NCBI GenBank assembly: GCA_918797485.1
Contig: CAKKNE010000005.1
Span: forward strand, 2,976,001 to 3,040,000
Length of the DNA stretch: 64,000 nt
Source: Pelagomonas calceolata
Lineage: Eukaryota; Sar; Pelagophyceae; Pelagomonadales; Pelagomonadaceae
Direction of reading: 5' to 3'
This document shows, in pieces, positions 4,298 through 63,258 of the stretch (position 1 is the first letter of the stretch; every line of letters starts with the position of its first letter). The notes under the pieces are model-generated. The model was not told the origin of the DNA. It made no database searches and saw nothing but the letters and a program-made list of their open reading frames with translations. The translations under genes were made by a program, and so were the position numbers.

Positions 4298-4321
4298 GCT
4301 AGCGGCCTGTAAGACACTAGC
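4298..4321 (+). promoter_or_regulatory. Palindromic promoter element, copy 1
   Basis: Intact copy: GCTAGCG, spacer GCCT, GTAAGACACTAGC. The ends form an inverted repeat (GCTAGYG/CRCTAGC). It lies 92 bases before the SDR ATG at 4414 and 328 bases from the start of the divergent transporter chimera. Role inferred from its repeated position before gene starts. Confidence 0.7.
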
Positions 4322-4413
4322 ACGCACTCTCAACTTTGGGGAGCCGGATTAGCATTGTTTTGCGCACGAGAGCAAGCAACGGACTGCACAATTCGTACAA
4401 CTGAACCTCCAAC

Positions 4414-5373
4414 ATGATGCGCGCAACATTACGTGCAACTCGTGCCCTCAGAGGTGCCAGGCATCACACACCCTTGGCTCATGGACAACAAGCATCCGCG
4501 GCAAAACGCCTTCTGGCGGGCGCAGGACTCGCCACCGGCGCTGCGGCCTGCTACGCGACCGCGCAAAGCACGGCGACGTGCGAGTCCGCCGCCGCCGCGA
4601 AGACGCGTTTCGACGAAAAAGGATTCGGCTCGCCGTCTTTTAAAGGCGATGTGGTCATCGTGACGGGCGGCACGACGGGCATCGGCGCGGCCTGCTGCGC
4701 GCACCTCGCGAAGGCGGGCGGCGTCGTCTACAACATTGATTTCAAAAAGCCTGCATCAGACGTGGCGGGCGTCACGCACCTGCAATGCGATGTCAGTGAT
4801 GTGGCGCAAGTGAAACGCGCGGTCGGGGCCGTCGTAAAGGCGCACGGGCGCGTCGACGTCCTGGTGTCGAACGCGGGCGTCTGGCACGGCGGCGACTTCG
4901 AGAAGACGTCGGAACGGGACTTCGATAAGGTGATTGGCGTGAACCTGAAGGGTACGTTCTTTGGTATCCAGGCCGCGGTGCCCGCCATGCTCGACCACGG
5001 CGGCTCCATCGTGATCATCGGCAGCGACCAGTCGTTGATAGGGAAGCCGGAGCAGCATTTGTACGGGTGCACGAAGGGCGCCATCGCGCAGCTGTCCAAG
5101 TCGCTCGCGGCGCACTACGCGCCGAAAGGCGTCCGCTTCAACTGCATCTGCCCCGGCACGATCGACACGCCGCTCATGCACGGCGCGGTCCAGGACTTCG
5201 TGAAGCAGAAGGGCGCGAACGCCCAGGAATTATACACGTGGCTCGAGACGGCGCAGCCGCTGCCGCGGCTGGGCCGGCCCGAGGAGGTCGCCGCGCTCGT
5301 CGCGTGCGTGGCCAAGATCCCCTTCTGTGTCGGGTCGATGATTTCTGTGGATGGGGGCTACACGGCGCAGTAG
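4414..5373 (+). CDS. Short-chain dehydrogenase/reductase, organelle-targeted
   Basis: 319 aa. The classical SDR fold begins near residue 78: VVIVTGGTTGIGAA is the TGxxxGxG nucleotide-binding loop, CDVSD and VLVSNAGVWHGG (NAG motif) follow. The catalytic set is a serine in IIGSDQS and YGCTK (YxxxK). NPG/SDR C-terminal signature: CPGTIDTPLM. The first 75 residues (MMRATLRATRALRGARHH, alanine-rich helix, AACYATAQSTATCES) look like a mitochondrial presequence plus a possible membrane-anchor segment. SDRs of this class oxidise or reduce alcohols, sugars or acyl groups with NAD(P)H; the substrate cannot be read from sequence. The closest general pattern is the 3-oxoacyl-ACP-reductase/glucose-dehydrogenase-like classical subgroup. 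Confidence 0.88.
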   Translation: MMRATLRATRALRGARHHTPLAHGQQASAAKRLLAGAGLATGAAACYATAQSTATCESAAAAKTRFDEKGFGSPSFKGDVVIVTGGTTGIGAACCAHLAKAGGVVYNIDFKKPASDVAGVTHLQCDVSDVAQVKRAVGAVVKAHGRVDVLVSNAGVWHGGDFEKTSERDFDKVIGVNLKGTFFGIQAAVPAMLDHGGSIVIIGSDQSLIGKPEQHLYGCTKGAIAQLSKSLAAHYAPKGVRFNCICPGTIDTPLMHGAVQDFVKQKGANAQELYTWLETAQPLPRLGRPEEVAALVACVAKIPFCVGSMISVDGGYTAQ

Positions 5374-5536
5374 TAGTAGTATTAAGAACGATAATTCGTG
5401 CTCAACCGGTACGTGATGGCTCAAACGTTGCCCCTCACGGTGCAGTAGTAGAGTAGTGTTACTAGTAAGGACGATTCGATTCGTGGGCGGGGTCGTGGTC
5501 GGTACCGAAGCCTCAGGTCCGAAGGTGCGTCATGGC

Positions 5537-5995
5537 TCAGACGTTGTCCTCGGGCACGACTACGATTGTGTCCGGATCCCTCACGGGAATGACCTTGGTC
5601 TTCGGCGTCTTCGGCGTCCCGACGGAGCCGCCGGTGATCTGCTCGTCGAGGCCGCGGTGGCCGCGCATGCTCGCCCTTCGGAGCGAATGCGGCGAGTGCG
5701 GGCTGTGCGCGTGCCAGGCCTGCGTCCGCGCGCGCACGGCGCTCTGGAGGATGAAGTGGCCGAGCGCCCGGAATAAACAAGCGACGACGAGCATGCCGAC
5801 GGCTATTGCGATGAACGTGACGACGTAATCGCCCGTCGTCGGCCCGCCATCGTCGTCGTAATCCCAACTGCTGTCTCGCGGCTTATATGTTGGTCGTGGC
5901 GTCGGCTGTTGAGCCAAGGTCAGCTGAGAAGTGGCTAAAACAAAGCTCGCGAGTCGAGCGGCGCCGTGACTTCGTGGTGGCCGTATCCTCGTCAT
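5537..5995 (-). CDS. Hypothetical single-pass membrane protein with signal peptide
   Basis: 152 aa, family not recognised. An N-terminal hydrophobic stretch (ARLASFVLATSQLTLAQQ) looks like a signal peptide with cleavage near AQQ. A short acidic ectodomain follows (DSSWDYDDDGG), then one transmembrane helix (YVVTFIAIAVGMLVVACLF) and a basic, histidine/serine-rich cytoplasmic tail (HAHSPHSPHSLRR) ending KTKVIPVRDPDTIVVVPED. The architecture suggests a type I membrane protein of the secretory pathway. The layout of signal, ectodomain, TM and charged tail is too ordered for a chance frame, but no homologue is known to me. Confidence 0.6.
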   Translation of the reverse strand: MTRIRPPRSHGAARLASFVLATSQLTLAQQPTPRPTYKPRDSSWDYDDDGGPTTGDYVVTFIAIAVGMLVVACLFRALGHFILQSAVRARTQAWHAHSPHSPHSLRRASMRGHRGLDEQITGGSVGTPKTPKTKVIPVRDPDTIVVVPEDNV

Positions 5996-6380
5996 TCCAG
6001 AAATTATTATTACTGATCAGGCGAGTCCGCCGTCTCTCGGGCGTCGCGCTGAGTGGATTTCCCGCTGCGGAGCCGCTGCTCGGGCCCATTTTCACCATAT
6101 TCGGGCCGGGAGGCGTGCGCGAAACTCTCGTCGGGGAAGCCCGGCAGGAATACTCTGTCCTTGGCAGACGCCAAAAACCCGTCTGCGCTCTCCTTTGAGA
6201 ACCTGGCCCAACTGGCCAAGCAACCCATCGACGGCGTCCTCGCCCTAAGGGCTGCCCAGCGACGACGGTTGTGCCCCCCGCGATACCTGCTCTCGTCGGA
6301 GGCAGATCTGTGGAGCTGTCGTACGAGTTACAGCTTGGTTCTGCTGGGGGTGGTGCATTTGCTCGAGCCGAGGAGGCGGC
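5996..6380. other. Gene-free region
   Basis: 385 bases between the divergent one-TM protein and mini-RING genes; presumably a shared promoter. The copies of the palindromic element seen elsewhere are absent. No other feature recognised. Confidence 0.5.
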
Positions 6381-6593
6381 ATGGCGACAGCAGTGGTCAA
6401 AGCAGAGCAGGCAGAGATCACAACCTGCAAATGCGGCAAGCCCGTGACGTTCGAAGCCGTGCCCTGCGGCTGCCGATTGGCGTGCGACAAGTGCGCGATG
6501 AAGCTCGCGTCCGGCGGCAAGTGCCGCCACTGCAAGGAGTGGTACGGCGGCTTGCGCCGCATTGTAAGCGGCGCGCCGTCGCAGGAGCGATAG
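6381..6593 (+). CDS. Small RING-like zinc-finger protein
   Basis: 70 aa, nearly all one zinc-binding module. Cysteines are arranged CKCG, CGC, CDKC, CRHC (residues about 16-52), a compact C3HC4/RING-like pattern with the histidine in CRHC. A short basic tail ends SQER. RING-type modules usually bind E2 ubiquitin-conjugating enzymes or act in protein-protein contacts; with no other domain, a role as a subunit or adaptor is only a guess. Start ATG at 6381. Confidence 0.6.
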   Translation: MATAVVKAEQAEITTCKCGKPVTFEAVPCGCRLACDKCAMKLASGGKCRHCKEWYGGLRRIVSGAPSQER

Positions 6594-7087
6594 CGTCGGC
6601 TTTCGCGCGTGTGCTTTGTGTTTCCAACCGCGTTCGTCCGTGCTCGATGACTTTTACCACGCCCTCGCCGCGACGGAGTAAGTCGATCATACTTTTAATA
6701 CCGGCATTATACTTCACCTCGATCCGTGCGGTCGCTGAAATTTTTTTATTATATCTAGTGCCCGTTTTAGATACCTTTTAGTACTACCGTGACTAGGCAG
6801 TCAGTAGTAGCAAAAGATATGTAAAACGGGGCTCGGGAATTTTTTTAATACGGCCACTATACTTCACCTCGATCGTGCGGTCGCTGATATTTTTTTGCTT
6901 TATTCTAGTGCCAGTTTAAAATCCCCTGCCCTAGTACTAACTAGTAACCGCGGACCGAGGAATTTTTTGACCATGCTCCAGAATCGCCCGGCACGCTGCG
7001 CCGGGTCGGCGGAGTTAAAACTACGTTGAGGCGAGACTTATACGCCCCGGGGAAAACAAAGAGGGGAGACGGGCGGCGCGTCGGCTT
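6594..7087. other. Convergent 3' region with duplicated AT-rich block
   Basis: 494 bases between the 3' ends of the mini-RING and HSP90 genes. No coding signal seen. It holds the diverged duplication listed separately and AT-rich runs unlike the surrounding GC-rich DNA. Confidence 0.5.
6691..6938 (+). repeat. Diverged direct repeat, about 97-base unit
   Basis: Copy 1 (about 6691-6787) and copy 2 (about 6841-6938) both read TACTTCACCTCGAT, GTGCGGTCGCTGA, a T-run, CTAGTGCC, GTTT and then TAGTACTA, about 151 bases apart. They differ by small indels and substitutions, so the duplication is not recent. AT-rich and non-coding; no terminal inverted repeats recognised. Confidence 0.7.
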
Positions 7088-13684: not shown

Positions 13685-15820
13685 TTAGGCCCGCTTGTTC
13701 AGGCTCGCGTACGAGCATATCGTGAGCGCGCGGAGCTCGCCCATCGAGGAGACCGCGATGAGGCCGGCGTCCTCGTCGCCGTAGTCCGTATCCCCGCCCA
13801 CGGCGATGACGGTCCTGAACCGTCGCCACGCCGCCTCCGGCATCGCCGTGAAGGTCGCGTCGGCGACGACGAGCGCGGCCGCCTTCCCGGGCGGCGCGTC
13901 GACGGGCGTGGCTTCGAAGACGACGCCCTCGTAGTCGTAGGCGTCCGTCTCGTCCGCGCCGCCGCCCATCAGCAGGTCCGTTGCGGACGCCTCGGGGTCG
14001 CCGAGGACGTTAAGTGGAAAACCGCCCTGCTCAACCACAACTAACGCGTAGATCCAAAAGTTGCCATCGGCGGCGAGCGCGGGGTCGAGGACGACGGATT
14101 CAAACTGGTGCAGCACCGTGATCGTCGAGTCACCCTTGAGCGCTCGGCGCGGCGGCGCGGCGGCTCTTCTCCGCGGGCGCGGCGGCACGAGGAACGCCGC
14201 TGGGGCGCATGGCGCGACGGCGACAGTGATATCGGCCTCCTTGGAACAGAGCGGACGGCGATATCCGGGAGGGCGCTTCTCCTGGGCCGCACGGAGGGCC
14301 TCGAGGGGGATGCGGGCGCGCTTGCAGAACTTTTCGTCCACTATGGTGGCATAGGAGAGGACAAGGGAGGCATCGACACCGGCGGCGCGGCAGACTTCGA
14401 GTCGGGGCCGGTACCGTGTTTTAAGGCTGCGGCCCAGACGAGATGGAGCGGATACTATTGAAGCGCGCACTTCGGACGGAGAGAGACCTAGTTCCTCCTC
14501 GAAGAAGCACAACTTTGGCTCCATGTTGTTCTCGACGCTCAGTCCCAGCAGTGGCGGAAACGCCACAACCACCTTCCTCAGCCCCGCGTCGTCCAGGTCG
14601 AGGCGCGTCTGCAGCCACTCGAGCTTTGACTCTAGAATGTCAATGCTCGTACTCAGTACCGACACACATCCTGCCACCTTCCTCAGCTGCTCGCCATCTA
14701 GGTCGAGGCGCGTTTGGAGCCAATGAAGCTTCGGCTCCAGGTTGGCCTCGACGCTATAGTTAAACAGTGACGGAAGCGTCAGAACCATCTTCCTCAGCTG
14801 CACGTCGTCCAGGTCGAAGCGCGTCTGCAGCCAGTCAAGCTTCGGCGCCACGTTGTCCTCGACGCTCAAGCCCAGCAGTTGCGGACGCCCCAGAACCACC
14901 TTCCTCAGCCCCGCGTCGTCTAGGTCGAGGCGCCTCCGCAGCCACTCCAGCTTCAACGCCATGTTGTCCTCGACGCTGTAGCCCAGCAGTGACGGAACCG
15001 CCAGAACCATCTTCCTTAGCCCCGATTCATCCAGGTCGAGACGTGTCTGCAACCACTCGAGCGTCGGTGCAAGATTGTCCTCGATGCTCAAGCCCAGCAG
15101 TTGCGGGCGCGTCAGAACCATCTTCCTCAGCTGCACGTCGTCCAGGTCGAAGCGCGTCTGCAGCCAGTCAAGCTTCGGCGCCACGTTGTCCTCGACGCTC
15201 AAGCCCAGCAGTTGCGGACGCCCCAGAACCACCTTCCTCAGCCCCGCGTCGTCTAGGTCGAGGCGCCTCCGCAGCCACTCCAGCTTCAACGCCATGTTGT
15301 CCTCGACGCTGTAGCCCAGCAGTGACGGAACCGCCAGAACCATCTTCCTTAGCCCCGATTCATCCAGGTCGAGACGTGTCTGCAACCACTCGAGCGTCGG
15401 TGCAAGATTGTCCTCGATGCTCAAGCCCAGCAGTTGCGGGCGCGTCATAACCAGCTTCCTCAACTGCGCGTCGCCCAGGTCGAGGCGCTTCTGCAGCCAA
15501 TCGAATTTCGGCTCCAAGGTCGCTTCGACGCTCAAGCCCAGAATATGCGGAAACGTCAGAAACATCTTCTTCAGCTCCGCGTCGCTCAGGTCGAGCGAGG
15601 ACTGTAGCCAATCGCACACGCAATCGATTTGCGTGCGAGTCATGCTCTCGGCAATATTCGGCAACAGCGCTCCCTCGGCCTTGGTCGCCTCCGCCGCCGT
15701 GCAGCCCAGGGCCTGGACGCAGTAATCGTAAGCAGCCCCTCTACACGCCACAGCACCTGATGGCCTAGAGCCCGGCGCCACCAGCGCGGCGGCGCCCGCC
15801 ACGAGCAATAACATCATCAT
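13685..15820 (-). CDS. mTERF-repeat protein, organellar, with unknown C-terminal domain
   Basis: 711 aa. The N-terminus (MMMLLLVAGAAALVAPGSRP) is a signal-peptide-like start followed by ALVAP, as in stramenopile plastid presequences. Residues about 55-455 are a tandem array of 37-residue mTERF units of the form LEWLQTRLDLDDAGLRKVV, then GRPQLLGLSVEDN. mTERF proteins bind organelle nucleic acid and affect transcription, splicing or ribosome assembly. Two three-unit blocks are identical or nearly so in DNA. The last 190 residues differ: a second AAFLVPPRPRRRAAAPPRR segment resembles another plastid-targeting start, then an uncharacterised domain ending YASLNKRA. So this may be a fusion of two genes, or two genes with an unrecognised boundary. 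The start codon overlaps the stop of the 92-aa ORF upstream. Confidence 0.8.
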   Translation of the reverse strand: MMMLLLVAGAAALVAPGSRPSGAVACRGAAYDYCVQALGCTAAEATKAEGALLPNIAESMTRTQIDCVCDWLQSSLDLSDAELKKMFLTFPHILGLSVEATLEPKFDWLQKRLDLGDAQLRKLVMTRPQLLGLSIEDNLAPTLEWLQTRLDLDESGLRKMVLAVPSLLGYSVEDNMALKLEWLRRRLDLDDAGLRKVVLGRPQLLGLSVEDNVAPKLDWLQTRFDLDDVQLRKMVLTRPQLLGLSIEDNLAPTLEWLQTRLDLDESGLRKMVLAVPSLLGYSVEDNMALKLEWLRRRLDLDDAGLRKVVLGRPQLLGLSVEDNVAPKLDWLQTRFDLDDVQLRKMVLTLPSLFNYSVEANLEPKLHWLQTRLDLDGEQLRKVAGCVSVLSTSIDILESKLEWLQTRLDLDDAGLRKVVVAFPPLLGLSVENNMEPKLCFFEEELGLSPSEVRASIVSAPSRLGRSLKTRYRPRLEVCRAAGVDASLVLSYATIVDEKFCKRARIPLEALRAAQEKRPPGYRRPLCSKEADITVAVAPCAPAAFLVPPRPRRRAAAPPRRALKGDSTITVLHQFESVVLDPALAADGNFWIYALVVVEQGGFPLNVLGDPEASATDLLMGGGADETDAYDYEGVVFEATPVDAPPGKAAALVVADATFTAMPEAAWRRFRTVIAVGGDTDYGDEDAGLIAVSSMGELRALTICSYASLNKRA
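14781..15446 (-). repeat. 333-base tandem duplication inside mTERF array
   Basis: Bases 14781-15113 and 15114-15446 are two copies of a block encoding three 37-residue mTERF units. They match base for base over nearly all of their length by eye; differences gather at the far end of the second copy (near 15446). Array growth by whole-unit duplication is therefore recent. Confidence 0.85.
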
Positions 15821-16095
15821 CGTTTCCCGTCGGCGATGGCCTGCTCGGCCTCCCTTAACTTCGCGCGGAGCTCGCGCAGCAGGGTCTCCTCGCGCTCGAT
15901 CGCGGCCTCCGACTCGCCGTCGCTCCGCATCTGCCGCACGAGGCCCGCCTGCTCGACGACGTCGGCGGCCAAGAACCGGCGCACGGCTGCGCGCGTCGGG
16001 TACTCCTCTTCCTCCTCGGGCTCGGCGGCTTTGCGAGGTGTGTGCTCGATCTCAGTGGTCTCCTTGACCAGCGCGCCCACCGTGGCGTTGTACAT
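15817..16095 (-). CDS. Small coiled-coil protein overlapping mTERF start
   Basis: 92 aa from the ATG at 16095 (a GTG lies just upstream). Acidic patch EEEEEYPTRAAVRRFLAAD, then a helix with heptad-like charge pattern (ESEAAIEREETLLRELRAKL) ending AIADGKR. No membrane segment or known domain. Its stop TGA overlaps the mTERF start as ATGA, an arrangement common in bacteria but unusual between nuclear genes. It could be an upstream ORF on the mTERF transcript, a separate gene with overlapping UTRs, or a mis-set frame. The palindromic element lies 76 bases upstream of its ATG, which favours a real transcript start here. Confidence 0.5.
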   Translation of the reverse strand: MYNATVGALVKETTEIEHTPRKAAEPEEEEEYPTRAAVRRFLAADVVEQAGLVRQMRSDGESEAAIEREETLLRELRAKLREAEQAIADGKR

Positions 16096-16171: not shown

Positions 16172-16193
16172 GCTAGCGCTGTAAGACACTAGC
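16172..16193 (+). promoter_or_regulatory. Palindromic promoter element, copy 2
   Basis: GCTAGCG, spacer CT, GTAAGACACTAGC; the spacer is two bases shorter than in copy 1. It sits between divergent genes, 76 bases from the small coiled-coil ORF and 277 bases before the LRR protein ATG. Confidence 0.7.
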
Positions 16194-16470: not shown

Positions 16471-18075
16471 ATGAAGCGCTTCAAACGCAAGCAGAAGAAG
16501 CTCAAGGAGAAGCAGACCGCTAGATTAATAGCGGAGTCTCCGTTAACCTGCGCCCTGGACATCTGGCAGGCGAGGAAGGAGGCCCGAGCCAAGGCCGAGT
16601 ACGCGTTATCTCACGAGGATTTTCTGATGGCCGAGGCGGACCTGGTGCACCACTTGAATAGGTTAAAGGCGTCGACTGGTTTGGACGAGAAGAAGTCGGA
16701 GCTCGTGGAGGAACAGAAGGAGACCTCGGCATTGCGGGAGTTCTTCGAGGGAGTAAACGGGTTCGGCTGGTTGCGGCGCGACGGCTGGATCGGTCGGGCG
16801 CAAGCGAAGAAGAAGCGGGCCGTGCCCTTTTTTGCGTTGGACTGCCAGTACTGGGAGGGCGTATCCATAAAAAGGTGGGAGCGGCGCGTCGGCGGGTTGG
16901 ACTTACCTCGTAATAACTTGGAAGGAGAGTTACCTACGGACGCGTTAACTAAACTCATATCGTTAGATACTCTCATACTGCCGGGCAACGACGTCTTCGG
17001 CACTTTATCTGGACTAGGTCAGCTGACGGCGCTGACAGACCTCGACCTCGCCGAGAACCGCTTTACGGGCGAAATCCCTTCTGAGTTGGGCGAGGTCAAC
17101 CAACTGACGAGGGTTGATTTGTCAAATAATGGGTTAGACGGTCAACTCCCAGCTTCGCTACAAAACCTGTCGCAGTTAAGGGTGTTACAACTGAGAGCGA
17201 ACGCGCTGGAAGGCGTTATACCGGAGGAGTACGCAACCCTGACGCAGCTCGAGGACCTCGATTTAGCTGAAAATAGATTTGTCGGTGGACTAGACTGGGC
17301 GTCGTCGTTAGTCAAATTAACATCATTGGACTGCTCGCGAAACTTTTTTTCTGGTGTTTTGCCAATACTACCAGAGACGTTGATAACGTTAGATCTCGGC
17401 GTGAACGGTTTGCAGGGGCCCTTCTCGAATGAGTTTTGCGAGAGGCATACTTCGTTACAAACTTGCATTTTAAGAGAGAACAGACTAGGCGGCGCCTTAC
17501 CGGAAAAGCTCGGCCTCCTGATCAACCTGAAACAGCTGGATCTCTCGCACAACCGCTTCATCAAATTCTTGCCGGAGTCCTGCACCCAACTTAGTGAATT
17601 AAGATGCTGCGACTTCCAGGGCAATGCCCTGGAAATGATCCACTATCCCCAGGGTCTTGAAGATATGGAGCATTTACAGTACTGGTTCGGCGCCGACGGG
17701 TTTTACTCCCAAAATTTACAGCGACCGAAGCGCTACGAGAAGTCGAAGTTCAAGGCCATGATGCGCTTCCAGAAGCTCTACGCGGGCGAGCCCGTCCTCA
17801 AAGCGCAGGCGCCCGTGGACCCGAACGCCGAAGACCCTAGGACCATGGGGCAATTACCACCGCACCCGCCCTTGCACATGACGAAGTTCGGGAAATTCGA
17901 GCGAGGCGAGGAGGTGCCGGACAACGTGTTACCAGGATCGCACTCGTCGCTGCCGCCCGAGGGCGTTTTTGTCGACGCCGAGGGCACGGTCTTCCCGCCG
18001 GGCTACGTGCATCTGGGGTTGCCGGGGACGTCGCACGAGATCGGGCCGCGCGACCACGAGGGCCGGACCCACTAA
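16471..18075 (+). CDS. Leucine-rich repeat protein, plant-type repeats
   Basis: 534 aa from the ATG at 16471. The frame is open upstream, but that stretch is AC-rich and reads like a 5' UTR (CAACACCACAAAGAGCC). The N-terminus is very basic (MKRFKRKQKKLKEKQ), then a helical region to about residue 140. From about 150 to 400 run some eight LRRs of the plant type with GxIP/GxLP turns: LDLAENRFTGEIPSELGEV, VDLSNNGLDGQLPASLQNL, LQLRANALEGVIPEEYATL. The C-terminal 130 residues are proline-rich with no known domain. No signal peptide or TM helix, so it is an intracellular LRR protein and not a receptor. Binding partner unknown. Confidence 0.85.
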   Translation: MKRFKRKQKKLKEKQTARLIAESPLTCALDIWQARKEARAKAEYALSHEDFLMAEADLVHHLNRLKASTGLDEKKSELVEEQKETSALREFFEGVNGFGWLRRDGWIGRAQAKKKRAVPFFALDCQYWEGVSIKRWERRVGGLDLPRNNLEGELPTDALTKLISLDTLILPGNDVFGTLSGLGQLTALTDLDLAENRFTGEIPSELGEVNQLTRVDLSNNGLDGQLPASLQNLSQLRVLQLRANALEGVIPEEYATLTQLEDLDLAENRFVGGLDWASSLVKLTSLDCSRNFFSGVLPILPETLITLDLGVNGLQGPFSNEFCERHTSLQTCILRENRLGGALPEKLGLLINLKQLDLSHNRFIKFLPESCTQLSELRCCDFQGNALEMIHYPQGLEDMEHLQYWFGADGFYSQNLQRPKRYEKSKFKAMMRFQKLYAGEPVLKAQAPVDPNAEDPRTMGQLPPHPPLHMTKFGKFERGEEVPDNVLPGSHSSLPPEGVFVDAEGTVFPPGYVHLGLPGTSHEIGPRDHEGRTH

Positions 18076-23953: not shown

Positions 23954-24322
23954 TTACTCCTTCCGCCAGAGCGCCTTGAGCGTGCCCGTGATGCCCGGGC
24001 CCTCGACGTTCAGCTTCGTCAGGCCGAGCATCGTGAAACCCGTGACGCCGACCATGACGGCGCGCGCCGGGCCGACGGCGGCCTTGGAGAAGAGCTTGGG
24101 CACGTAGTCCGTAATGACATAATTCATGCCGATGTGGCCGTGGAGCGGGAACATGATTGCCAAACCCATGTCCACGGGGAAGGACAGGAACGTGTTGTCT
24201 GTGGCCAGCGCCACGGGCGTCGCGCCGAGCAGCGCGAGGTTCACGCGGTGGTAGACCTTGACCGCGAGGCCGACCTCGGCGTCGGCGGCGATGAACTTGC
24301 CTAGGGCTCCGCCCATGGACAT
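23954..24322 (-). CDS. sdhD: Succinate dehydrogenase membrane anchor subunit D
   Basis: 122 aa, nuclear-encoded small cytochrome b subunit (CybS) of complex II in the mitochondrial inner membrane; it anchors SdhA/B and helps bind haem and ubiquinone. Seen: KVYHRVNLALLGATPVAL (first helix with His), a second helix FPVDMGLAIMFPLHGHIGMN carrying the HxH that includes the haem-ligand position, the quinone-site DYVPKLF, and a third helix AVMVGVTGFTMLGLT. Length fits the family minus a long presequence. It is convergent with the proteasome-like gene, 14 bases apart. Confidence 0.8.
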   Translation of the reverse strand: MSMGGALGKFIAADAEVGLAVKVYHRVNLALLGATPVALATDNTFLSFPVDMGLAIMFPLHGHIGMNYVITDYVPKLFSKAAVGPARAVMVGVTGFTMLGLTKLNVEGPGITGTLKALWRKE

Positions 24323-24550: not shown

Positions 24551-24574
24551 GCTAGTGTCTTACAGGCCGCTAGC
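24551..24574 (-). promoter_or_regulatory. Palindromic promoter element, copy 3
   Basis: Reverse orientation: GCTAGTGTCTTAC, AGGC, CGCTAGC. It is nearly midway between divergent genes, 228 bases from the SdhD start and 243 bases from the start of the 288-aa membrane protein. Confidence 0.7.
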
Positions 24575-26473: not shown

Positions 26474-26665
26474 CGTGCACCGTCCCTGTGACCGCGCCTG
26501 TTCGATGGCGTGAGCCGGGACGCACTATGGGCAGCCAAAAACTTCGGCTGCCATCCAGCAAAAAATTCACAACGTCAATTGTGAGAGGCTTCGAATCCCC
26601 CATGGATGCTTCCATTACGACCCCGTGCCCATGCTTAGACGTATGGCAAGCCAGAAGGGCGGTTT

Positions 26666-26687
26666 CTAGTGTGTTAGATGCCCTAGC
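26666..26687 (-). promoter_or_regulatory. Decayed copy of the palindromic promoter element
   Basis: CTAGTGTGTTAGATGCCCTAGC keeps the outer CTAG ends and the TAGTGT-TTA half of the element. It lies between divergent starts at 26473 and 26827 (139 bases before the latter). Confidence 0.4.
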
Positions 26688-27943: not shown

Positions 27944-28103
27944 TCCGCCGATGTTACGGTGCTAGGACTAGTGGGCGGAGCCCCTGCCCAGGGCTGGGGG
28001 GGAGACACCGCGCGTCGCCGATTCATCGGCGGCGGGCGCGGGCCGCTTCTTTCATAACAGCGTACCTCCTTCTAAGCAGAACCGCCTCGGCAAACCCCCC
28101 CCG
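27944..28103 (+). mobile_element. Dispersed ~152-base repeat, copy A (MITE-like)
   Basis: Bases about 27949-28102, from CGATGTTACGGTGCTAGG to GGCAAACCCC and a C-run, match copy B at 44872-45025 in opposite orientation almost base for base. An 11-base direct repeat TCGCATGCGTC flanks this copy (27933-27943 and 28104-28114), a possible target-site duplication. It contains a small palindrome (GCCGATTCATCGGC). Too short to code for anything. Confidence 0.75.
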
Positions 28104-28248: not shown

Positions 28249-28272
28249 GCTAGCGTCCAGTAAGACACTAGC
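28249..28272 (+). promoter_or_regulatory. Palindromic promoter element, copy 4
   Basis: GCTAGCG, spacer TCCA, GTAAGACACTAGC. It lies 211 bases before the ATG of the three-repeat protein; the upstream neighbour is the F-box 3' end, so only one gene can be served. Confidence 0.7.
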
Positions 28273-37850: not shown

Positions 37851-38338
37851 TTAGTCCCCCTCCTTAAATTTTTCGGCTAGTGGTCCGATGCCTGCCTTGG
37901 ACAAGGCCAAGATTACGAGCGCTATTCCGGACTCGATTAAAATGGCTTTCGGGTACTTGTCCATGAACACGGCGTTGACGTCCTCGCGATCGTCCTGCGC
38001 GGGGGGTGACGCCGTCGCGTCGACGCGCATCGACGACCGACAAGAATTCTCCGAGTCGAGTCGCTACCGCCTTCACGCCATCGCCGCGACTCGTCGGAAT
38101 GCGGACGCCGGTCTCGCACCTTCCAGGTGATTGCTCGCGCCGTCGACGGTGCCGCAGCGACGCCGATCAATGCAGCGGCAGCGTTAAAGCGCCGACGCCT
38201 CTCGGCAGCAACAACCTGGCTTCTTTGCGCATCGATCGGGACGCGTTGGCTGCTGTACGCTGCCGCAGTGGCCAGCAGTAGGAATGCCAAAGCTGCTTTG
38301 GCAGCCATCGAAGCTGTAAGCGCTACGAATTTTGTCAT
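37851..38338 (-). CDS. Small thylakoid protein, Tat-like import signal
   Basis: Spliced CDS 38338-38120 plus 37994-37851 gives 120 aa. A signal-peptide-like start (MTKFVALTASMAAKAALAFL) is followed by a plastid transit region and a second signal, ERRRRFNAAAALIGVAAAP then STARA. Its twin arginines and AxA cleavage site are typical of Tat-routed thylakoid proteins. The mature part is about 50 residues, DDREDVNAVFMDKYPKAI then LIESGIALVILALSKAGI, with one hydrophobic helix near its C-terminus. This looks like a small nuclear-encoded photosystem or cytochrome-complex subunit, or an assembly factor; I cannot name it. The palindromic element lies 86 bases upstream. Confidence 0.75.
37995..38119 (-). 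other. Introner-type intron in thylakoid protein gene
   Basis: 125 bases, phase 0, donor GTGCGAGACC, acceptor CCCCCGCGCAG. It holds GCGATGGCGTGAAGGCGG and GTCGATGCGCGTCGACGCG, variants of the shared core. It separates the import signals from the mature protein almost exactly (ITWK/DDRED). Confidence 0.8.
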
Positions 38339-38424: not shown

Positions 38425-38449
38425 GCTAGCGGCGTGTAAAGACACTAGC
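38425..38449 (+). promoter_or_regulatory. Palindromic promoter element, copy 5
   Basis: GCTAGCG, spacer GCGT, GTAAAGACACTAGC; one extra A in the second half. It is 86 bases upstream of the thylakoid protein ATG, on whose other side is the gene-free repeat region. Confidence 0.7.
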
Positions 38450-43897: not shown

Positions 43898-44503
43898 TTA
43901 CGCGGCCTTCTTTTTTGCTTTCTTGGCCTTCTTGCGGAGCTTGCGCGCCTTCCTTTCTTCAGGCGTCTCGTCGTCACGCGCTCGCTTCTTCTTCTTCTTT
44001 TTCTTCTCTGCCGGCGGCGCAGCGACTGGCGCAGGCACCGGAGCGACTGGCGCGGGCGCGGCCTCGGCGCGCGCGGCGTCGCGCCGCGCGACCAGATACG
44101 CCCAGAGCGCGTCGACGGCGGCGGCGTCGCCGCCTCGTAAATTGAGCGAGTTCTTCACCCAGTTGCAGAACTTCTTCTGGTTCCGCGGGATGTTCTCGAA
44201 GCCTTGGAGGCGCGGCAGCAGCTTGGCCGCGGCGGGCGGCGCGTCCCTGCGGTCGGCGCAGGCCGCCTGCACGAGCTCCGCCCACGCGTCTTGAGCCGTT
44301 TTTTTCTTCGGCGCCTTGTACAAGTTACCCTCGTAGCGCTCCGCCTCGCTCATGCACGTCGCGTGCTGCAAGTAGGAGTCGTCGTGGAACGTCGCGCCGC
44401 AGTCGACGCATGTTATGGCCGAGCAGCTGCATCTGCACAGGTGCTGCGCGACCTTCAAGCGCTTCAGCGTCTCGTTGCAATCTTCACACACGAAGAAGAC
44501 CAT
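43898..44503 (-). CDS. LYAR: LYAR-type nucleolar zinc-finger protein
   Basis: 201 aa. The N-terminus MVFFVCEDCNETLKRLKVAQ then CSAITCVDCGATFHDDSYLQ HATC matches the two C2HC fingers of LYAR (cell growth-regulating nucleolar protein), including the conserved CVDCG-F-DD-Y-H-C spacing. The middle holds a small conserved helix region (FENIPRNQKKFCNWVKNSLN), and the end is a lysine-rich nucleolar signal (EKKKKKKKRARDDETPEERK). LYAR proteins act in rRNA synthesis and pre-rRNA processing. The palindromic element is 293 bases upstream of the ATG. Confidence 0.9.
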   Translation of the reverse strand: MVFFVCEDCNETLKRLKVAQHLCRCSCSAITCVDCGATFHDDSYLQHATCMSEAERYEGNLYKAPKKKTAQDAWAELVQAACADRRDAPPAAAKLLPRLQGFENIPRNQKKFCNWVKNSLNLRGGDAAAVDALWAYLVARRDAARAEAAPAPVAPVPAPVAAPPAEKKKKKKKRARDDETPEERKARKLRKKAKKAKKKAA

Positions 44504-44796: not shown

Positions 44797-44820
44797 GCTA
44801 GCGGCCTGTAAGACACTAGC
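44797..44820 (+). promoter_or_regulatory. Palindromic promoter element, copy 6
   Basis: Identical to copy 1 (spacer GCCT). It lies 293 bases upstream of LYAR; the other side is the 3' end of the VPS13-like gene, so LYAR is the only start it can serve. Confidence 0.7.
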
Positions 44821-44871: not shown

Positions 44872-45025
44872 TTCGGGGGGGTTTGCCGAGGCGGTTCTGC
44901 TTAGAAGGAGGTACGCTGTTATGAAAGAAGCGGCCCGCGCCCGCCGCCGATGAATCGGCGACGCGCGGTGTCTCCCCCCCAGCCCTGGCAGGGGCTCCGC
45001 CCACTAGTCCTAGCACCGTAACATC
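44872..45025 (-). mobile_element. Dispersed ~152-base repeat, copy B
   Basis: Reverse complement of copy A at 27949-28102, differing only by one base in the C-run and very few others. It lies 48 bases from palindromic element copy 6. The end motif CCTAGCACCGTAACA is repeated again at 45056-45070, just outside the copy. Confidence 0.75.
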
Positions 45026-53900: not shown

Positions 53901-56387
53901 TTACTCCTCCCACCACTCCCCACCAAGGAACGGCCGCAGCGCCTCCGAAGAAGAAAACGCCGTCCGCGCGGCGGACACGAAGTCGTGCCTGCTCAGCCGC
54001 GGTTTTGACGCGACCAGATTCGCCTTTCGCCGAGCCCTAAGATACCCAGCAAAGGCCGCGCCGACGGCGCCGCGCAAGTCGGACCGGAGCCGTTCTGCGG
54101 ACGAAGGCCGCAGCGCGCGAACCGCGGAGTCGGCGGCGACCGCCGCGGCCGTAAACAGATCGCGCAGGTTCTCGCGCGCGCCGTCCAACGTCTGCAGCTC
54201 CGCGTCCAAAAGTAGAGGAGCCGCCCGCGCGCGAAGGGCAGCCCGCACGCGCCCCGCGACGTTCGCCGCTCTCGGCGACGGCCGCCCGAGCCGCGCCGCA
54301 AGCCTCCGCCGGCGCTGGGCGCTGGGCGCACGGCGCGCGCGGCCCGTCGCCGCGTCGACGTCGAGGCCCAGGAACCGCAACCTGGGCGCCGGCGCCGCGG
54401 CGAGCAGCGGGTGCGGCACGGTCGCGTGGGTCTTGGCCGCCGTGACCAGGATGTTGCGCCGCGGGCCCGCCTCGGCGTAGGCGTCGAGGAAGCCGCCGAC
54501 GTCCTCGCCCAGCACGAGCGTGTCGTCGACCACGCGGCACGCGACGCACGACGACTGCAGGAACCGCCCGAGGCAGTCGCGCTCAAAGGCGCCGTAGTAC
54601 AGGTCGCATAGGAGTGAAGACGCGCACGACCCCTGCGGCACGCCGACGACCTGCTTGTAGAACCGCGGCCGGCCCCGGCATTTCGCGACCGTGTGATGAT
54701 CTAAACAGTGCGCCTGGAGCGCGCCGACGAGCGTCGCCCGCGTCACCAGACGCGTCCGCCGCGCGTGCAGGCCGCCTTTGCTATCATCAATCGACGCGCG
54801 CCGGCCGCCGTGGATCCGGTACGAGTCGTGCGCCAGCGCGGCGGCGCAGATGTCGACAAGGCGCCGCTGGTCCATGCGGTCGAAGCAACCGGACGCGTCC
54901 AGCGCCAAGCCCTCGTAGTTCCGATCCCGGGCCTGGCGCAGCGCGCGCCAGAGCGCGTCGGCCCCGCCGCCCGCGCAGCCCAACAGCTCGGGCCGCCGCC
55001 GCGCCTCGACCTGTGTGGAAATCAACCAGTGTGTCGCGTGCACGCCATCGAGCAGGCGTCGCGTCGATGGCGTGGAAGTTTAGATTCAGCCGTAAGCGGA
55101 GAAGCGCCGCGACATTTGATTTCCACACAGGCCTTCGACCCTCAGCGCGAGCACCGCGTCGTGCAGGCACGCCGCTCCCGGCGCTCGCTGCCCGGCACCG
55201 CGCCGCCCGAGCGCCTGGATCAACCGCACGCCGCCCGCCGGCTTCGGCACGCCGCGGACCTTCGCGCTGCGCGGCGGCCGCGGCGCCTCCCGCGGGACCC
55301 GCTGCAGGTGCTCCGACCCCTCGAGAGCGTTCGCTTCGGCGGCGTACCACGCGACTCTGGAACGGTACTCCGGGACTCCGGCTACCGAGGGAAAGGCCGC
55401 GAGGCGCGCCCTGAGCAGCGGTAACGCGAGGTCCGTCAGCACCCAAAGACAGAAGGTCTCGAGGAGCTCGCGCGCCGCCCGCAAATCCGACGCGGGCCGC
55501 CGCGCTCGATCGGCGTGGGTCCACGTAATGTGGGACTCGGCGAGCACCTCGCGGAGCCGCCTTCCATTTATCCGGCCGCCGACGTCGCCCGCTCGGAGGA
55601 ACGCGTCGATGGCGCGGTAGTAGCGGCGCTCGTTGCGCTTGCTGCCGAAGAACGCGCGTGGGACGATCGGCCGGCAGGCGCCGACGACGAAGCGCGCAGC
55701 GCACGTCGCGTCGACCACCTCCTCTGCCGAAATAGTCTTCTTATAGATCTCGCCGATGCGCGGGGACGAGTAGTTCCGCGCGAGCTTGGCCAATAAGGGC
55801 CAGGCGTGCTTCTTGAGGCGGACGCGCAGACGCCTTCTTTTACTGACGTCGCCCCAGATCGCCTCGGCGAGTTTCAACGGAGACGGATTCCGGGAGAGGA
55901 CGTGCGCCTTGGGCAAGGCTTGGGTGTAGGTCGCGACGAAGGCGGACGACCGGTACAAAGCGTCGGCGCCGATGGAAGAATCGCGCGGTAATGCGGAGGT
56001 GACCGAGTAGGCGTCCCGCGCTTCGCAGGATTTCGTCGACAAATACGCTTGAAGACCCGGCGCGAAGAAGCGCCGCTTCAGTTCGTCGCATCGGACCCTC
56101 TCAATCTTGTCCGCGTTGAGCGACCGGCCGCGCCAGTCCGAGGCCCGGCCCGTATAGCTTATCACTTCATTCAGCAATTTTCCGAGTTCCACCACCTTGT
56201 CGTAGCCCCAGACGGCCAGCGTCGTCGGCTGCAGCGTCGCGTCGACGACCTCGCACTCGCGCTTCGCGACGACCGCTCCGGTCCATGTGCGCACGTCCTT
56301 GCGCGGGCCGACCCACCGCACGACGGCGATTCCTGCGACGCGCGCGCCGGCGTCCGCGGCCTGCAGCGCCGTGCCCAGCGTGTCCAT
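53901..56387 (-). CDS. TERT: Telomerase reverse transcriptase
   Basis: Spliced CDS 56387-55140 plus 55010-53901 gives 785 aa. RNA-binding region, T/QFP motifs: VPRAFFGSKRNERRYYRAID and LREVLAESHITW, then VAWYAAEA (motif 1) and VRGVPKPAGGVRLI (motif 2). RT domain: motif A LALDASGCFDRMDQRRL (Asp 454), B' VVGVPQGSCASSLLCDLYYG, C RVVDDTLVLG (Asp 578-579), D VTAAKTHATVP and E LRFLGLDVDA. Motif order and the VPQGS and VDD forms are those of TERT rather than a retroelement. It is short for the family: the N-terminal TEN region is brief or lost. A decayed palindromic element lies 196 bases upstream. One introner element splits it between motif 2 and motif A. Confidence 0.92.
55011..55139 (-). mobile_element. 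Introner element forming the TERT intron
   Basis: The element body (55011-55130) starts CTGTGTGGAAATCAA and ends TTGATTTCCACACAG, perfect 15-base inverted ends apart from small interior changes. Flanks are GCCTCGAC (55003-55010) and a near copy, CCTTCGAC (55132-55139). On the coding strand, the upstream flank GTCGAAGG supplies the GT donor and the element end CACAG the acceptor, both in phase 0, so LRVEARRRPE is restored. It contains CACGCCATCGACGCGACG. Confidence 0.9.
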
Positions 56388-56583
56388 CTCAACTCGTGAC
56401 GAGCTTGGGCAGGGACATGATGATGACCACCATGATGAGGAATTCCGCTATTTGCACGGCGGTGACATGCATTTTTGATCGATGCGACGTTGCCTAGGCA
56501 CGGTAGGCACTGCCTTGCTTAGGCACAGCCCTATTGCGGTAGTCCTTTTGAAGCACAGCGGTTTTTAGCACGAGAGCGCGACA

Positions 56584-56607
56584 GCTAGCGGCCCGTAAGG
56601 CACTAGA
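56584..56607 (+). promoter_or_regulatory. Palindromic promoter element, copy 7
   Basis: GCTAGCG, spacer GCCC, GTAAGGCACTAGA; two substitutions from copy 1. It is 196 bases upstream of the TERT ATG; the other side is the NAD synthetase 3' end. Confidence 0.65.
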
Positions 56608-56621: not shown

Positions 56622-56645
56622 GCACTAGTCCTAGCACCGTAACAA
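56622..56645 (-). repeat. Short fragment of the dispersed repeat
   Basis: CACTAGTCCTAGCACCGTAA followed by CA equals the outer end of repeat copies A and B. Only this end is present, 15 bases from palindromic element copy 7. Confidence 0.6.
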
Positions 56646-60391: not shown

Positions 60392-60472
60392 GTCGCGGCT
60401 ATGGCTGCGCGCGGCGCCAGGCGGACGCGCCGGCGCGTCGTCGCGAAGGAGCAAGTTTAATAGTGTGTTATT

Positions 60473-60731: not shown

Positions 60732-60826
60732 CTGTGCGAAACCCACCGCGTCAAGCCCCACGCCATCGACGCGTCGATGTCTCTGTAACTGCGTCTGCGC
60801 GATGGCGTATTGGTTGATTTTCGGCC
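60732..60826 (-). mobile_element. Decayed introner element outside a recognisable gene
   Basis: Ends CTGTGCGAAACCCA and TTGATTTTCGG are worn versions of the CTGTGTGGAAATCAA inverted ends, and the interior has CACGCCATCGACGCGTCGATG. About 95 bases. It sits where the gene remnant begins. Confidence 0.55.
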
Positions 60827-61247
60827 CTGGTGAATGCGTCATGGCCGCCCCATTATTAGTCTCTTCTCCCGTTTAGATAGCGGTATATGTGCTTTATTAC
60901 GGCCCATCTTTAGATCGTGATCTGTTGCATCAGGGCGTAGCGCACTTGTAAACCGCAACCGCTATGTGTGTAGCTAGTTATTCGGGTTTTGGGGAACCTT
61001 TATGCATAGTAGCGCACCTGGAAAACCCGTTTTGTAGACGCCCCAAGACTAGCATATAGACACCCGCGTGCGGAGTGCTCCCCAATTCCCCTCAAGAGAC
61101 CTCAACGGCTAGAAATGGTGAGACTACCCGAACTTTTTTTTAGAAATCCCGCACGCGGGTGCTAGTATAGAATAGTCCAGGTGGGCCCGGGAGGAGCGGG
61201 AGGGGTAGGGGACCCAACGAGTCGACCTAAATAGCCCGAGCCCGATC
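60827..61247. other. Gene-free, AT-richer region
   Basis: 421 bases between the remnant and the 3' end of the Tudor-AP2 gene, stop-rich in all frames, with the inverted repeat listed separately and T/A runs. Confidence 0.5.
61049..61176 (+). repeat. Inverted repeat (hairpin) near AP2 gene 3' end
   Basis: CACCCGCGTGCGG at 61061-61073 is exactly complementary to CCGCACGCGGGTG at 61149-61161, 75 bases apart. Outer sequences (GACTAGCATATAGA and CTAGTATAGAATAGTC) are also partly complementary. This could be a small MITE-like element or a 3' hairpin. Confidence 0.6.
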
Positions 61248-62947
61248 TTACCGCGACTCGTCGCTATCGTCCTTCTCCGGCACGGGCAGGGGCGGCGGCG
61301 GCGGCGGCGGCAGCGACCGCGCCAGGAACACGGCGAGCAGCTTGTCGTTGTACCGCCGCGACTCCTCGAGCTGGCCCCGGACGTGCGCCAACTGAGCGAG
61401 CGCGTCGTCGCGCTCGAGGCGCAGGCGGTCGACCTCCCGGGCCACGCGCGGCGCGCGCGGCGAGGGCGCCGGGGCGCGCGGCGCCGGCGCGGCGGCCGGC
61501 CGCGCGCGGCGCTGGTTCTTCTCGGCCTTGACCTCGCCGTCCCGCGGGAAATTCACCGGCCGGCCCTGCTCGCGCGCCTTGGCGTCGTAGGCCTGGGCCG
61601 CCGCGATGGGGTCGGAGAAGGACCCGAGATGGACCTTCTCGCCGGCGACGGTTATGCTGCTCTTCCACGTCGGCTTTCGTGCACCAGGGGCCTGTGTGGA
61701 AATCAAGCAGTGAGTGAGGTTATCCTGAGAATTATTGCGGAGACCTTCATGAACCTCCACGCCATCGAGCTGCAGCAGTTGCGGGGACAACGTCGCGTCG
61801 ATGGCGTAGAATCTCCACGCCATCGAGCAGATCAGTTACGGGGCGACGTCGGGTCGATGGCGTGGGGCGTCCGAAATTTGATTTCCACACAGCCCGGCGC
61901 CCGCCAGATGCCAACGAATCCGTCGTCGTCCTCCTCCGGCAGCGGCGAGCCGAACAGAATGTGCTGCGGCGGCGATTGAGGGGCCGTCCGCGCGCGCTTC
62001 CGCTGCTTCTTGGCCTGCTGCTCGCCGGCGCGCGGGAAGTTCACGGGGCGGCCGTGGGCGCGGGCCTTGTCGTCGTAGGCCCGCGCCGCGGCCTCGGGCG
62101 AGTCGTAGGTGCCCAGGTGCATGCGCTCGCCGTTCACCTTGATGCCGGCCTCCCAGTTCGCCGTCTTGCTCTTGCGGTAGATGCCCACGAAGTCGTCCTC
62201 GCCTGCAGCTTCCACGGCCGGCGGCGGCCGCGGCGGCTCGGGCGGCATCTCGACAAATTCCCGGATGATGGGCCGGATCAGCTCCGCGGCGACGCCCGAC
62301 TCGCGGTCGCCGTCATCATAAACCACGTCGTAGCCGATCAACGCCGACCCGCCCGTGATGCGGCCGCCGTACCACTGCTTGCCGAAGCCGAAGCGCGCCT
62401 CGACGCGGTCGCCGTCCTCGAACGACTGCGCCGGTGCGGGCGCCGGCGCCGGCGCCGGCGCCGCGGCGGGCGTCGCGAGGGTCACTTCGAGCGACGGCGC
62501 GGGCCCGACCCTCGTGATTTTGACGTCGGGGTCCGGGAAGCGCACGGCCTCGCTCTGGCCGTCGTCGTAGAGCACCATGGCGCGTTGCTTGTCCAGCAAT
62601 CCCGTGATGGTGCCCCCGTAGTCCTGGCCGTCGCTGAAGCGCACGGTGATGCGGCTCCCGGGCGGCGGCGGCGGCGGCGTCGGCTCCGTCTCCATCGCCG
62701 CGGGCTCGGGCGGCGGCGGTGCCGCCGCGGGCTCGGCCGGCGCTGGCACCGCCGCGGGCTCGGCCGGCGCTGGTGCAGCGGTCTCCATCGCCGCGGGCTC
62801 GGCCGGCGCTGGAGGCGCAGCGTTTGTTTCTTCGGAGCGGGCGCGCTTGACGGCGCGGCGGGGCCCGGACGGAGCCTGCCACAACGACTTCGGGCCCATG
62901 GCGTCCGGTCGGGAGGGTCCGAGTCCCTTGGGAGCCTCTTCGGCCAT
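61248..62947 (-). CDS. Tudor-like and double-AP2 DNA-binding protein
   Basis: Spliced CDS 62947-61901 plus 61691-61248 gives 496 aa. Residues 97-150 (GSRITVRFSDGQDYGGTITG, VLYDDGQSEAVRF) and 177-227 (GDRVEARFGFGKQWYGGRIT, YDVVYDDGDRESGV) are two Tudor/Agenet-type barrels that read histone marks. Residues 252-305 are an AP2 domain (FVGIYRKSKTANWEAGIKVN, LGTYDSPEAAARAYD, GRPVNFP). A second AP2 domain (FVGIWR | APGARKPTWKSSITVAGE, LGSFSDPIAAAQAYD) is split by an introner element. A coiled-coil-like Arg/Leu tail and proline run end the protein. The Pro-Glu-Ala N-terminus is low-complexity. A chromatin-linked transcription factor is the natural reading. ATG 62947 is used; the frame extends upstream from a GTG. 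Confidence 0.85.
61692..61900 (-). mobile_element. Introner element splitting an AP2 domain
   Basis: Element body 61692-61892 (201 bases) with ends CTGTGTGGAAATCAA and TTGATTTCCACACAG; flanks CCAGGGGC and CCCGGCGC match at 6 of 8. Coding-strand donor lies in the flank as GCGCCGGG, acceptor CCACACAG, both phase 0, giving GIWRAPGARKPTW: a GC-AG intron. Inside, the core CACGCCATCGA with its complement occurs about twice, as if the element had grown by duplication. Confidence 0.88.
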
Positions 62948-63258
62948 TCTTTCGCTGTTTTCCGACGGCTTCGGCTCCTCTTGTGGTTCGCCGCTATTCT
63001 TTGTGATGATTGTGGTCGCCGGCAGTGGCGCTCTGGGTGCCTGAGCCGGGGTTTGAGAACTTGCGCTCTCGCGGCTTGACACTGTGCCTGTTGGAAAAAA
63101 CGCGTGTTTCACTAGCTTACTGGGGGCTGTGCAAAGCTGAAATGCGCTCGCTTCTCAGCGCTGCTCTGCCGTAGGTTAGCTTGCTAGTGTCTTACAGCCG
63201 CTAGCAATTTCCCTCGCGCCGGAGCCCTGGAACCGGCAGACAGTTGAAAAACCGCTAC
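62948..63258. other. Promoter region of Tudor-AP2 gene
   Basis: 311 bases between two minus-strand AP2 genes. It holds palindromic element copy 8. The frame of the Tudor-AP2 gene stays open to 63112 without an ATG. Confidence 0.5.
63183..63205 (-). promoter_or_regulatory. Palindromic promoter element, copy 8
   Basis: Reverse orientation: GCTAGTGTCTTAC, AGC, CGCTAGC. It is 235 bases upstream of the Tudor-AP2 ATG; the other neighbour is a 3' end. Confidence 0.7.

What the first reader, a model, noticed from the sequence alone, without database searches (positions are those of the whole stretch)
4298..63205. Recurrent ~24-base palindromic element upstream of gene starts
GCTAGCG, 2-4 spacer bases, GTAAGACACTAGC is found at 4298, 16172, 24551, 28249, 38425, 44797, 56584 and 63183, with decayed copies at 934 and 26666. 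All lie 75-330 bases upstream of at least one ATG; none is inside a gene or between two 3' ends. Both orientations occur, as expected for a near-palindrome with ends GCTAGYG/CRCTAGC about ten bases apart. Genes served differ widely (SDR, SdhD, LYAR, TERT, thylakoid protein, AP2). This could be a core promoter module, a dimeric factor site or an insulator. I know of no description of it.
Basis: partly seen in the sequence, partly recalled or inferred. Interest (0 to 1): 0.82.

Follow-up and report, generated by a model that had tools for sequence, protein, structure and literature searches.

The report
Widespread promoter motif in marine alga
An asymmetric stretch of about 26 DNA letters sits between genes, a few hundred letters before their starts, thousands of times in the genome of a tiny ocean alga; it is very probably the docking site of an unknown protein that opens gene promoters, often two back-to-back promoters at once.

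Summary
All ten places are present, and the motif is genome-wide: GCTAGCG-N2-6-GTAAGACACTAGC occurs 1,291 times, its backward control 0 times; the 13-base core with at most 1 mismatch occurs 3,251 times, control 12. The genome (32.4 Mb, 8 contigs) fits Pelagomonas calceolata (inference). In 264 contiguous kb, 45 of 47 copies lie in spacers holding at least one gene start, 19% of that DNA (p = 6e-30; 36 of 47 with my gene caller's first setting). 44 of 116 such spacers carry one. The conserved block is about 26 bp and the flanks share nothing more, so it is not a transposon tip. Orientation to the gene is random (14 same, 19 opposite) and copies avoid the last 75 bp before the ATG, arguing against RNA and core-promoter elements. 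Symmetric versions are rare (37 and 18 sites), so the palindromic look misleads. Best reading: a proximal-promoter site for one unidentified abundant DNA-binding factor, working like yeast general regulatory factors, often in divergent spacers. Binding, chromatin opening and effect on transcription are inferred. I saw no published description in the held library.

The parts
933..955 (-). decayed copy of the element
   Evidence: core CTAAGACACTAGA (2 mismatches), left arm GGTAGCG; tandem spacer, about 130 bp before the ATG at 1070 of a dihydroxy-acid dehydratase gene; in a called intron with the first gene-caller setting
4298..4321 (+). exact element, spacer 4
   Evidence: divergent spacer, about 100 bp from the ATG at 4414 of a short-chain dehydrogenase gene and about 346 bp from the start at 3969 of an ammonium-transporter-domain gene; in a called intron with the first setting
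16172..16193 (+). exact element, spacer 2
   Evidence: divergent spacer, 92 and 283 bp from the two called starts; LRR gene at 16471 on one side, small ORF 15817-16095 and then an mTERF gene on the other
24551..24574 (-). exact element, spacer 4
   Evidence: divergent spacer, 235 and 260 bp from two called starts; CybS (SdhD-type) gene 23954-24322 on one side
26665..26687 (-). decayed copy of the element
   Evidence: core CTAACACACTAGA (3 mismatches), left arm GCTAGGG; divergent spacer, 198 bp from a WW-domain gene's start
28249..28272 (+). exact element, spacer 4
   Evidence: tandem spacer, 217 bp before the called ATG at 28484
38425..38449 (+). near-exact element with one extra A (GTAAAGACACTAGC)
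   Evidence: tandem spacer of 1.9 kb, 413 bp from a small called ORF at 37851-38030
44797..44820 (+). exact element, spacer 4
   Evidence: tandem spacer, 311 bp before the ATG of the LYAR-type zinc-finger gene 43898-44503
56584..56607 (+). near-exact element (GTAAGGCACTAGA)
   Evidence: tandem spacer, about 130 bp from the called start at 56472; telomerase RNA-binding domain found in the adjoining ORF 55089-56387
63183..63205 (-). exact element, spacer 3
   Evidence: tandem spacer, 242 bp before the ATG of the gene 61832-62947 (AP2 hit below the Pfam curated cut-off)

Best explanation
The element is a proximal-promoter binding site for one abundant sequence-specific DNA-binding factor of this alga. 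It reads GCTAGCGKCCTGTAAGACACTAGCAA, with usually 2-5 bases of flexible spacing between a short left arm and a longer, stronger right arm. The factor binds double-stranded DNA without regard to gene direction. It keeps the middle of the spacer open so that RNA polymerase II can start outward on one side (tandem genes) or both sides (divergent pairs), as yeast general regulatory factors such as Abf1 and Reb1 are thought to do. Shown here: sequence, copy number, confinement to 5' spacers in the stretches tested, indifference to orientation, usually one copy per spacer, asymmetry, sharp boundaries. Inferred: that a protein binds, that it is a single factor, that it opens chromatin, and that it raises transcription in both directions.
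For: 1,291 composite copies against 0 in the backward control. 3,251 cores with at most 1 mismatch against 12. 45 of 47 copies in 264 kb are in 5' spacers (19.4% of the DNA; p = 6e-30) and 1 in coding sequence, although 72% of the DNA is called coding. 44 of 116 5' spacers carry it, 20 of 46 divergent and 24 of 70 tandem. Its pieces are the top enriched words in promoters without prior input. No orientation preference in tandem spacers, 14 same and 19 opposite. In divergent spacers copies sit nearer the middle than uniform placement gives (n = 21, p = 0.012), and 2 of 45 lie within 75 bp of an ATG against 11.8 expected. Exact copies in 30 loci taken from contig 1: 20 divergent, 8 tandem, 1 convergent, 1 intron; divergent bias p = 0.003 against 46:70 spacers. 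Information ends at about 26-28 bp apart from a weak A-rich tail. AT content of the spacers peaks at the element, in part from its own letters. Genes served are mixed. In two wild relatives at 96% and 89% identity the 24-mer is unchanged, with small indels within 4 bp of its left edge.
Against: No TSS, chromatin or binding data were available, and no candidate factor was identified. Genes with and without the element do not differ in Pfam coverage (23 of 30 against 20 of 30), GC3, codon score or length, so no link to expression is shown. Divergent spacers with and without it have the same length. With the first intron setting of my gene caller 9 of 47 copies fell in called introns; a stricter setting, chosen after seeing this, removed them. 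The caller was not checked against the published annotation. Two copies are called convergent. Three of the 30 loci hold a second copy in the same spacer (L032, L045, L051). Looser copies do not favour divergent spacers (17 tandem, 13 divergent). The two wild relatives were found by the motif itself, so their conservation is partly built in.
Confidence: 0.62

Rival explanations
1. Insulator or boundary element: the site is bound by a factor that keeps neighbouring promoters, or an upstream gene's 3' end and the next promoter, from interfering with each other.
For: It sits near the middle of divergent spacers. In tandem spacers it is found in the longer ones, median 464 bp against 261 bp. Usually one copy per spacer: 34 of 35 with the first gene calls.
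Against: 44 of 116 5' spacers have it and the rest do without. No regular spacing along the chromosome: CV 0.94 against 0.68-1.09 for a random choice of 5' spacers. On sequence alone nothing separates it from a bidirectional activator site.
Confidence: 0.15
2. Core promoter element that positions the start site, like INR, FPR or DPEP of Phytophthora.
For: Confined to 5' spacers and very abundant.
Against: No orientation bias, which is typical of core elements (PMC3599244, passages seen). Distance to the ATG varies widely, 37-715 bp, median 220 over all flanking ATGs and 198 for the nearest. No aligned companion sequence within 150 bp.
Confidence: 0.06
3. Tip or remnant of a dispersed transposon, or an introner-type element.
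For: P. calceolata has an intron-length peak near 210 bp, as for introner elements (PMC9481584, passages). The arms look like short inverted repeats.
Against: Flanks of 78 copies share nothing of note beyond about 28 bp. 45 of 47 are in 5' spacers and 1 in coding sequence.
Confidence: 0.02
4. An RNA element in 5' leaders: a hairpin formed by the two arms, or a donor splice site (GTAAG).
For: The minus strand of the exact copy at 4298 folds better than shuffles (z = -2.0; 7 of 200 shuffles fold as well). GTAAG resembles a 5' splice site (general knowledge).
Against: Orientation to the gene is random. For the copy at 44797 (folded without its first base) neither strand stands out from shuffles: z = 0.67 plus, -0.87 minus.
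Confidence: 0.02
5. Replication origin or other chromosome-maintenance site that happens to lie in open promoters.
For: Thousands of copies on both strands; origins often lie in promoters (general knowledge).
Against: Spacing is no more regular than a random choice of promoters. 1 of 47 copies is in a 3'-3' spacer, though these are only 1.5% of the DNA.
Confidence: 0.05

Closest known systems
Yeast general regulatory factor sites (Abf1, Reb1, Rap1, Cbf1)
   Same: Abundant sequence-specific promoter sites tied to many kinds of gene; the set in use changes between lineages (PMC2897762, passages seen). That they act in either orientation and in shared divergent promoters is recalled.
   Different: Longer (about 26 bp) and two-armed with flexible spacing; 44 of 116 5' spacers served here; factor unknown; nucleosome depletion not shown.
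Phytophthora core promoter elements INR, FPR, DPEP
   Same: Stramenopile promoter motifs present in a fraction of genes.
   Different: Those are 7-base patterns near the start site with an orientation bias of 1.8- to 5.9-fold (PMC3599244, passages); this element is long, orientation-free and farther upstream. The same paper mentions unnamed motifs 75-300 nt upstream of the start site without orientation bias, called probable enhancers or proximal elements.
Animal promoter and insulator motifs (Drosophila Motif 1/DRE, ZNF143, CTCF)
   Same: Long, information-rich sites in many promoters (recalled, not tested).
   Different: No sequence similarity known to me; no homologue searched for in this genome.
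Introner elements of Aureococcus and Pelagomonas
   Same: Repeated in the same lineage.
   Different: Introners are about 210-bp introns inside genes (PMC9481584, passages); this is 26 bp in spacers with unique flanks.

Membership tests
General-regulatory-factor-type proximal promoter site | Enriched in promoter spacers and depleted from coding sequence | tested here: met
   45 of 47 in 5' spacers, 1 in coding sequence
General-regulatory-factor-type proximal promoter site | Placed without regard to orientation and present in divergent spacers | tested here: met
   14 same, 19 opposite in tandem spacers; 20 of 46 divergent spacers carry it. Action in both directions not shown.
General-regulatory-factor-type proximal promoter site | Broad, functionally mixed gene set | tested here: met
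   Metabolism, proteasome, eIF3, telomerase, ankyrin, phosphatase genes and others
General-regulatory-factor-type proximal promoter site | Nucleosome depletion at the site in vivo | not testable with these tools
   No MNase or ATAC data; only an AT peak, partly the element's own letters
General-regulatory-factor-type proximal promoter site | Bound by an identified factor | not tested
   No binding data; no candidate searched for
Core promoter element (INR/FPR/DPEP type) | Orientation bias relative to the gene | tested here: not met
   14 same, 19 opposite, p = 0.49
Core promoter element (INR/FPR/DPEP type) | Narrow distance to the start site | tested here: inconclusive
   ATG distances broad, 37-715 bp; start sites themselves not known
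Transposon tip / MITE / introner | Similarity extending beyond the motif | tested here: not met
   No columns of note beyond about 28 bp in 78 copies, looked at to 150 bp each side
Symmetric homodimer (palindromic) site | Symmetric versions as common as the asymmetric one | tested here: not met
   37 and 18 symmetric sites with arms 7-13 bp apart, the second pattern with a control of 7, against 1,291 asymmetric composites (that pattern fixes 20 bases, these fix 14)
RNA hairpin or splice signal in 5' leader | Fixed strand relative to the gene | tested here: not met
   14 same, 19 opposite

The most novel reading that the evidence does not exclude
One still unknown factor of pelagophyte algae recognises this asymmetric 26-bp two-armed site and is the main organiser of promoters in the genome: an independent invention of a CTCF- or Abf1-like architectural protein that sets bidirectional promoters, with a second, strand-fixed element (the motif under Noticed in passing) marking spacers between tandem genes.
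Probability: 0.25. Interest if true: 0.78.

Novelty: new member of a known kind. Interest (0 to 1): 0.58.

Why it matters
If the reading is right, about two fifths of promoter spacers (44 of 116 in the 264 kb tested) of an alga described as one of the most abundant eukaryotes in the oceans (PMC9481584, abstract) share one long motif. I found little on promoter logic of photosynthetic stramenopiles in what I searched, so a motif of this strength gives a direct handle: the binding protein can be fished out with a 26-bp probe, and promoters for genetic tools can be built around it. It would also add a case of lineage-specific general promoter factors, whose turnover is described in yeasts (PMC2897762, passages).

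Tried and rejected
Transposon tip: rejected by the flank profile. RNA element or splice donor: rejected by orientation; folds are mixed. Origin-like regular spacing: not found. Link to gene class or codon bias: none found. Pol III or small-RNA genes as targets: no tRNA found by ARAGORN (bacterial setting) in the window or L001-L020; Rfam gave nothing in the window or in the 11 loci, and one U6 in the 19 loci (L014), with no kept element copy within 3 kb of it. CpG/TpG phasing around copies: no clear period. Element direction towards the nearer gene in divergent spacers: 25 towards, 17 away, not pursued. Relatives: 0 contigs in IMG/VR (the tool may leave out records near this genome). Two contigs in prokaryote genomes, both apparently stray P. 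calceolata-like DNA in Tara Oceans bins (96% and 89% identical to G000 in the best pieces), with one match of an 11-base core in each whole bin (backward control 0 and 1). Other pelagophytes could not be reached, so conservation across the class is untested. Paper searches by sequence held 304, 21 and 32 papers; I saw titles and abstract starts of the first 20, 10 and 10, none on a promoter motif of this kind.

Rows dropped: of 75 core hits with at most 3 mismatches in 264 kb, 50 had at most 4 mismatches in all and 47 were kept (three with 2+2 mismatches dropped, not classified). The orientation count and the profile used the tighter rule of at most 3 mismatches in all. The 30 extra loci are 30 of the 100 places listed, all on contig 1, picked by position before any gene calling on them. 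Pfam was run on 30 of 43 listed single-exon genes with the element and on 30 of 64 without.

Mended on re-check: the Pfam count without the element is 20 of 30 (I first wrote 21), and the copy at 4298 is in a divergent spacer.
Full report
Source. The window is G000:C5:2976001-3040000 of a genome with 32,445,274 bases in 8 contigs. The published Pelagomonas calceolata RCC100 assembly has six nuclear contigs (32.4 Mb), a plastid and a mitochondrial contig, 63% GC and 16,667 genes (PMC9481584, abstract and passages).

Observation. Every listed copy is present. Six of the eight main copies have the exact core; 38425 has an extra A and 56584 two changes. In the window 9 core matches with at most 2 mismatches stand against 0.53 expected. 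Genome-wide the exact core occurs 872 + 869 times, reversed control 0; the composite with 2-6 spacer bases 658 + 633 times, control 0; the core with at most 1 mismatch 1,590 + 1,661 times, control 6 + 6. In 264 kb of contiguous DNA (L001-L020 plus the window) I kept 47 copies, about one per 5.6 kb; scaled to the genome this would be roughly 5,800 (inference). The same scan with 30 letter-permuted motifs gave a mean of 0.6 and a maximum of 3; the reversed and the complemented motif gave 2 each.

Anatomy. A profile of 78 copies gives GCTAGCG-KCCT-GTAAGACACTAGCAA: a strong right arm, a left arm blurred in this alignment by spacer changes, then a weak A-rich tail. Spacer lengths are 4 (45 of 78), 3 (18), 5 (8), 2 (5), 1 (1), 0 (1). 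Columns beyond about 28 bp carry nothing of note out to 150 bp on either side. The arms are related as inverted repeats, but symmetric versions are rare: 37 distinct sites with two GTG/CAC arms (control 1) and 18 with two GCG/CGC arms (control 7), some of them fitting other patterns, against 1,291 asymmetric ones. So the site has a direction, even though it is used in either direction.

Position. I wrote a codon-model gene caller, trained on the 264 kb (146 genes; the published density would give about 136). It was not checked against the published annotation. With its first intron setting 36 of 47 copies fell in 5' spacers (p = 1.3e-20), 9 in called introns, 1 convergent, 1 in coding sequence. 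After seeing this I tested stricter intron penalties; with -15, 2 intron calls remain, with -20 none. With penalty -20 (163 genes) 45 of 47 are in 5' spacers, which are 19.4% of the DNA (p = 6e-30): 24 tandem, 21 divergent; 1 is convergent, 1 coding. The coding one is a weak match (3 + 1 mismatches); the convergent one sits beside a doubtful 61-codon ORF. Of 116 5' spacers 44 carry a copy. The median distance to the nearest ATG is 198 bp; 2 copies are within 75 bp against 11.8 expected. Thirty loci around exact copies, picked by position from the 100 places listed on contig 1, gave 20 divergent, 8 tandem, 1 convergent, 1 intron (with the first setting 19, 6, 1, 4). Exact copies thus favour divergent spacers (Fisher p = 0.003 for these loci; p = 0.007 with the 15 exact copies of the 264 kb that lie in 5' spacers added). 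The looser copies do not (13 divergent, 17 tandem). In tandem spacers 14 copies point with the gene and 19 against.

Unbiased check. Counting all 7-, 8- and 10-mers in 91 promoter spacers against 20 dinucleotide shuffles ranks pieces of this element first.

Genes served. In the window these include dihydroxy-acid dehydratase, an ammonium transporter, a short-chain dehydrogenase, an LRR protein, CybS, a WW protein, LYAR, an AP2-like protein below the curated cut-off, and a telomerase RNA-binding-domain gene. Elsewhere: proteasome subunit, SET, tubulin-tyrosine ligase, eIF3, GHMP kinase, ankyrin genes, phosphatase, AATF (TRAUB domain), GRASP. Proteins with a Pfam hit at 1e-5: 23 of 30 with the element, 20 of 30 without. 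GC3, codon score and length do not differ. So no gene class stands out.

Natural variants. Two contigs in prokaryotic bins from Tara Oceans hold a copy. The stretches around them match G000 at 96% and 89% in the best pieces. In both pairs the 24-mer is identical, while a 3-base and a 2-base indel lie within 4 bp of its left edge. This is weak evidence of constraint, because the wild copies were found by the motif.

Mechanism. Random orientation, sharp ends, unique flanks, one copy per spacer as a rule, a central place in divergent spacers and an AT peak in the spacer, partly its own letters, fit a double-stranded DNA site for a factor that opens promoters, as general regulatory factors do in yeasts (PMC2897762, passages). 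[quoted passage not shown] this element fits the second class. That a factor binds and opens chromatin is inference.

Literature. Searches for Pelagomonas, pelagophyte or Aureococcus with motif, promoter or cis-regulatory terms, for stramenopile core promoters, and for pieces of the sequence (lists seen in part) showed me no description. The library holds only open-licence papers, and apart from passages of three papers I saw only listings.

Noticed in passing
window 27953-27973 (-), 45002-45022 (+), 56623-56643 (+); 288 copies genome-wide with at most 1 mismatch, control 0: A second motif, CACTAGTCCTAGCACCGTAAC, often preceded by CAGGGGCTCCGCC. Of 16 copies seen, 13 (in 12 spacers) have both neighbouring genes called; all 13 lie between tandem genes, antisense to them, 45-196 bp past the upstream stop codon. 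Of the other three, L057 is in the sense of its one called neighbour. 7 of 8 copies in the 264 kb lie within about 310 bp of an element copy, but only 1, a weak one, of 6 loci fetched for the motif. It may be a terminator or tandem-spacer mark; some copies belong to a longer dispersed repeat.
   Followed up: partly
264-kb stretch C5:2776001-3040000, e.g. window 39041 and 41564: A palindrome TGGGCWGCCCA, whose pieces are enriched in promoter spacers.
   Followed up: no
genome-wide, e.g. G000:C2:4166475-4166496 and C6:3778029-3778050: A rarer relative of the element with a TCG centre, about CTAGTGTGTCGNNACACTAG, appears among the symmetric sites.
   Followed up: no
L021 (CAJWEZ010000013.1) and L022 (CAJWOS010000634.1): Contigs of two bins named as Spirochaeta and proteobacterium hold Pelagomonas-like DNA beside bacterial-looking genes, so they look chimeric or contaminated.
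   Followed up: partly
L014:1443-1518 (C5:2907443-2907518): A U6 spliceosomal RNA gene; no kept element copy lies within 3 kb of it.
   Followed up: no
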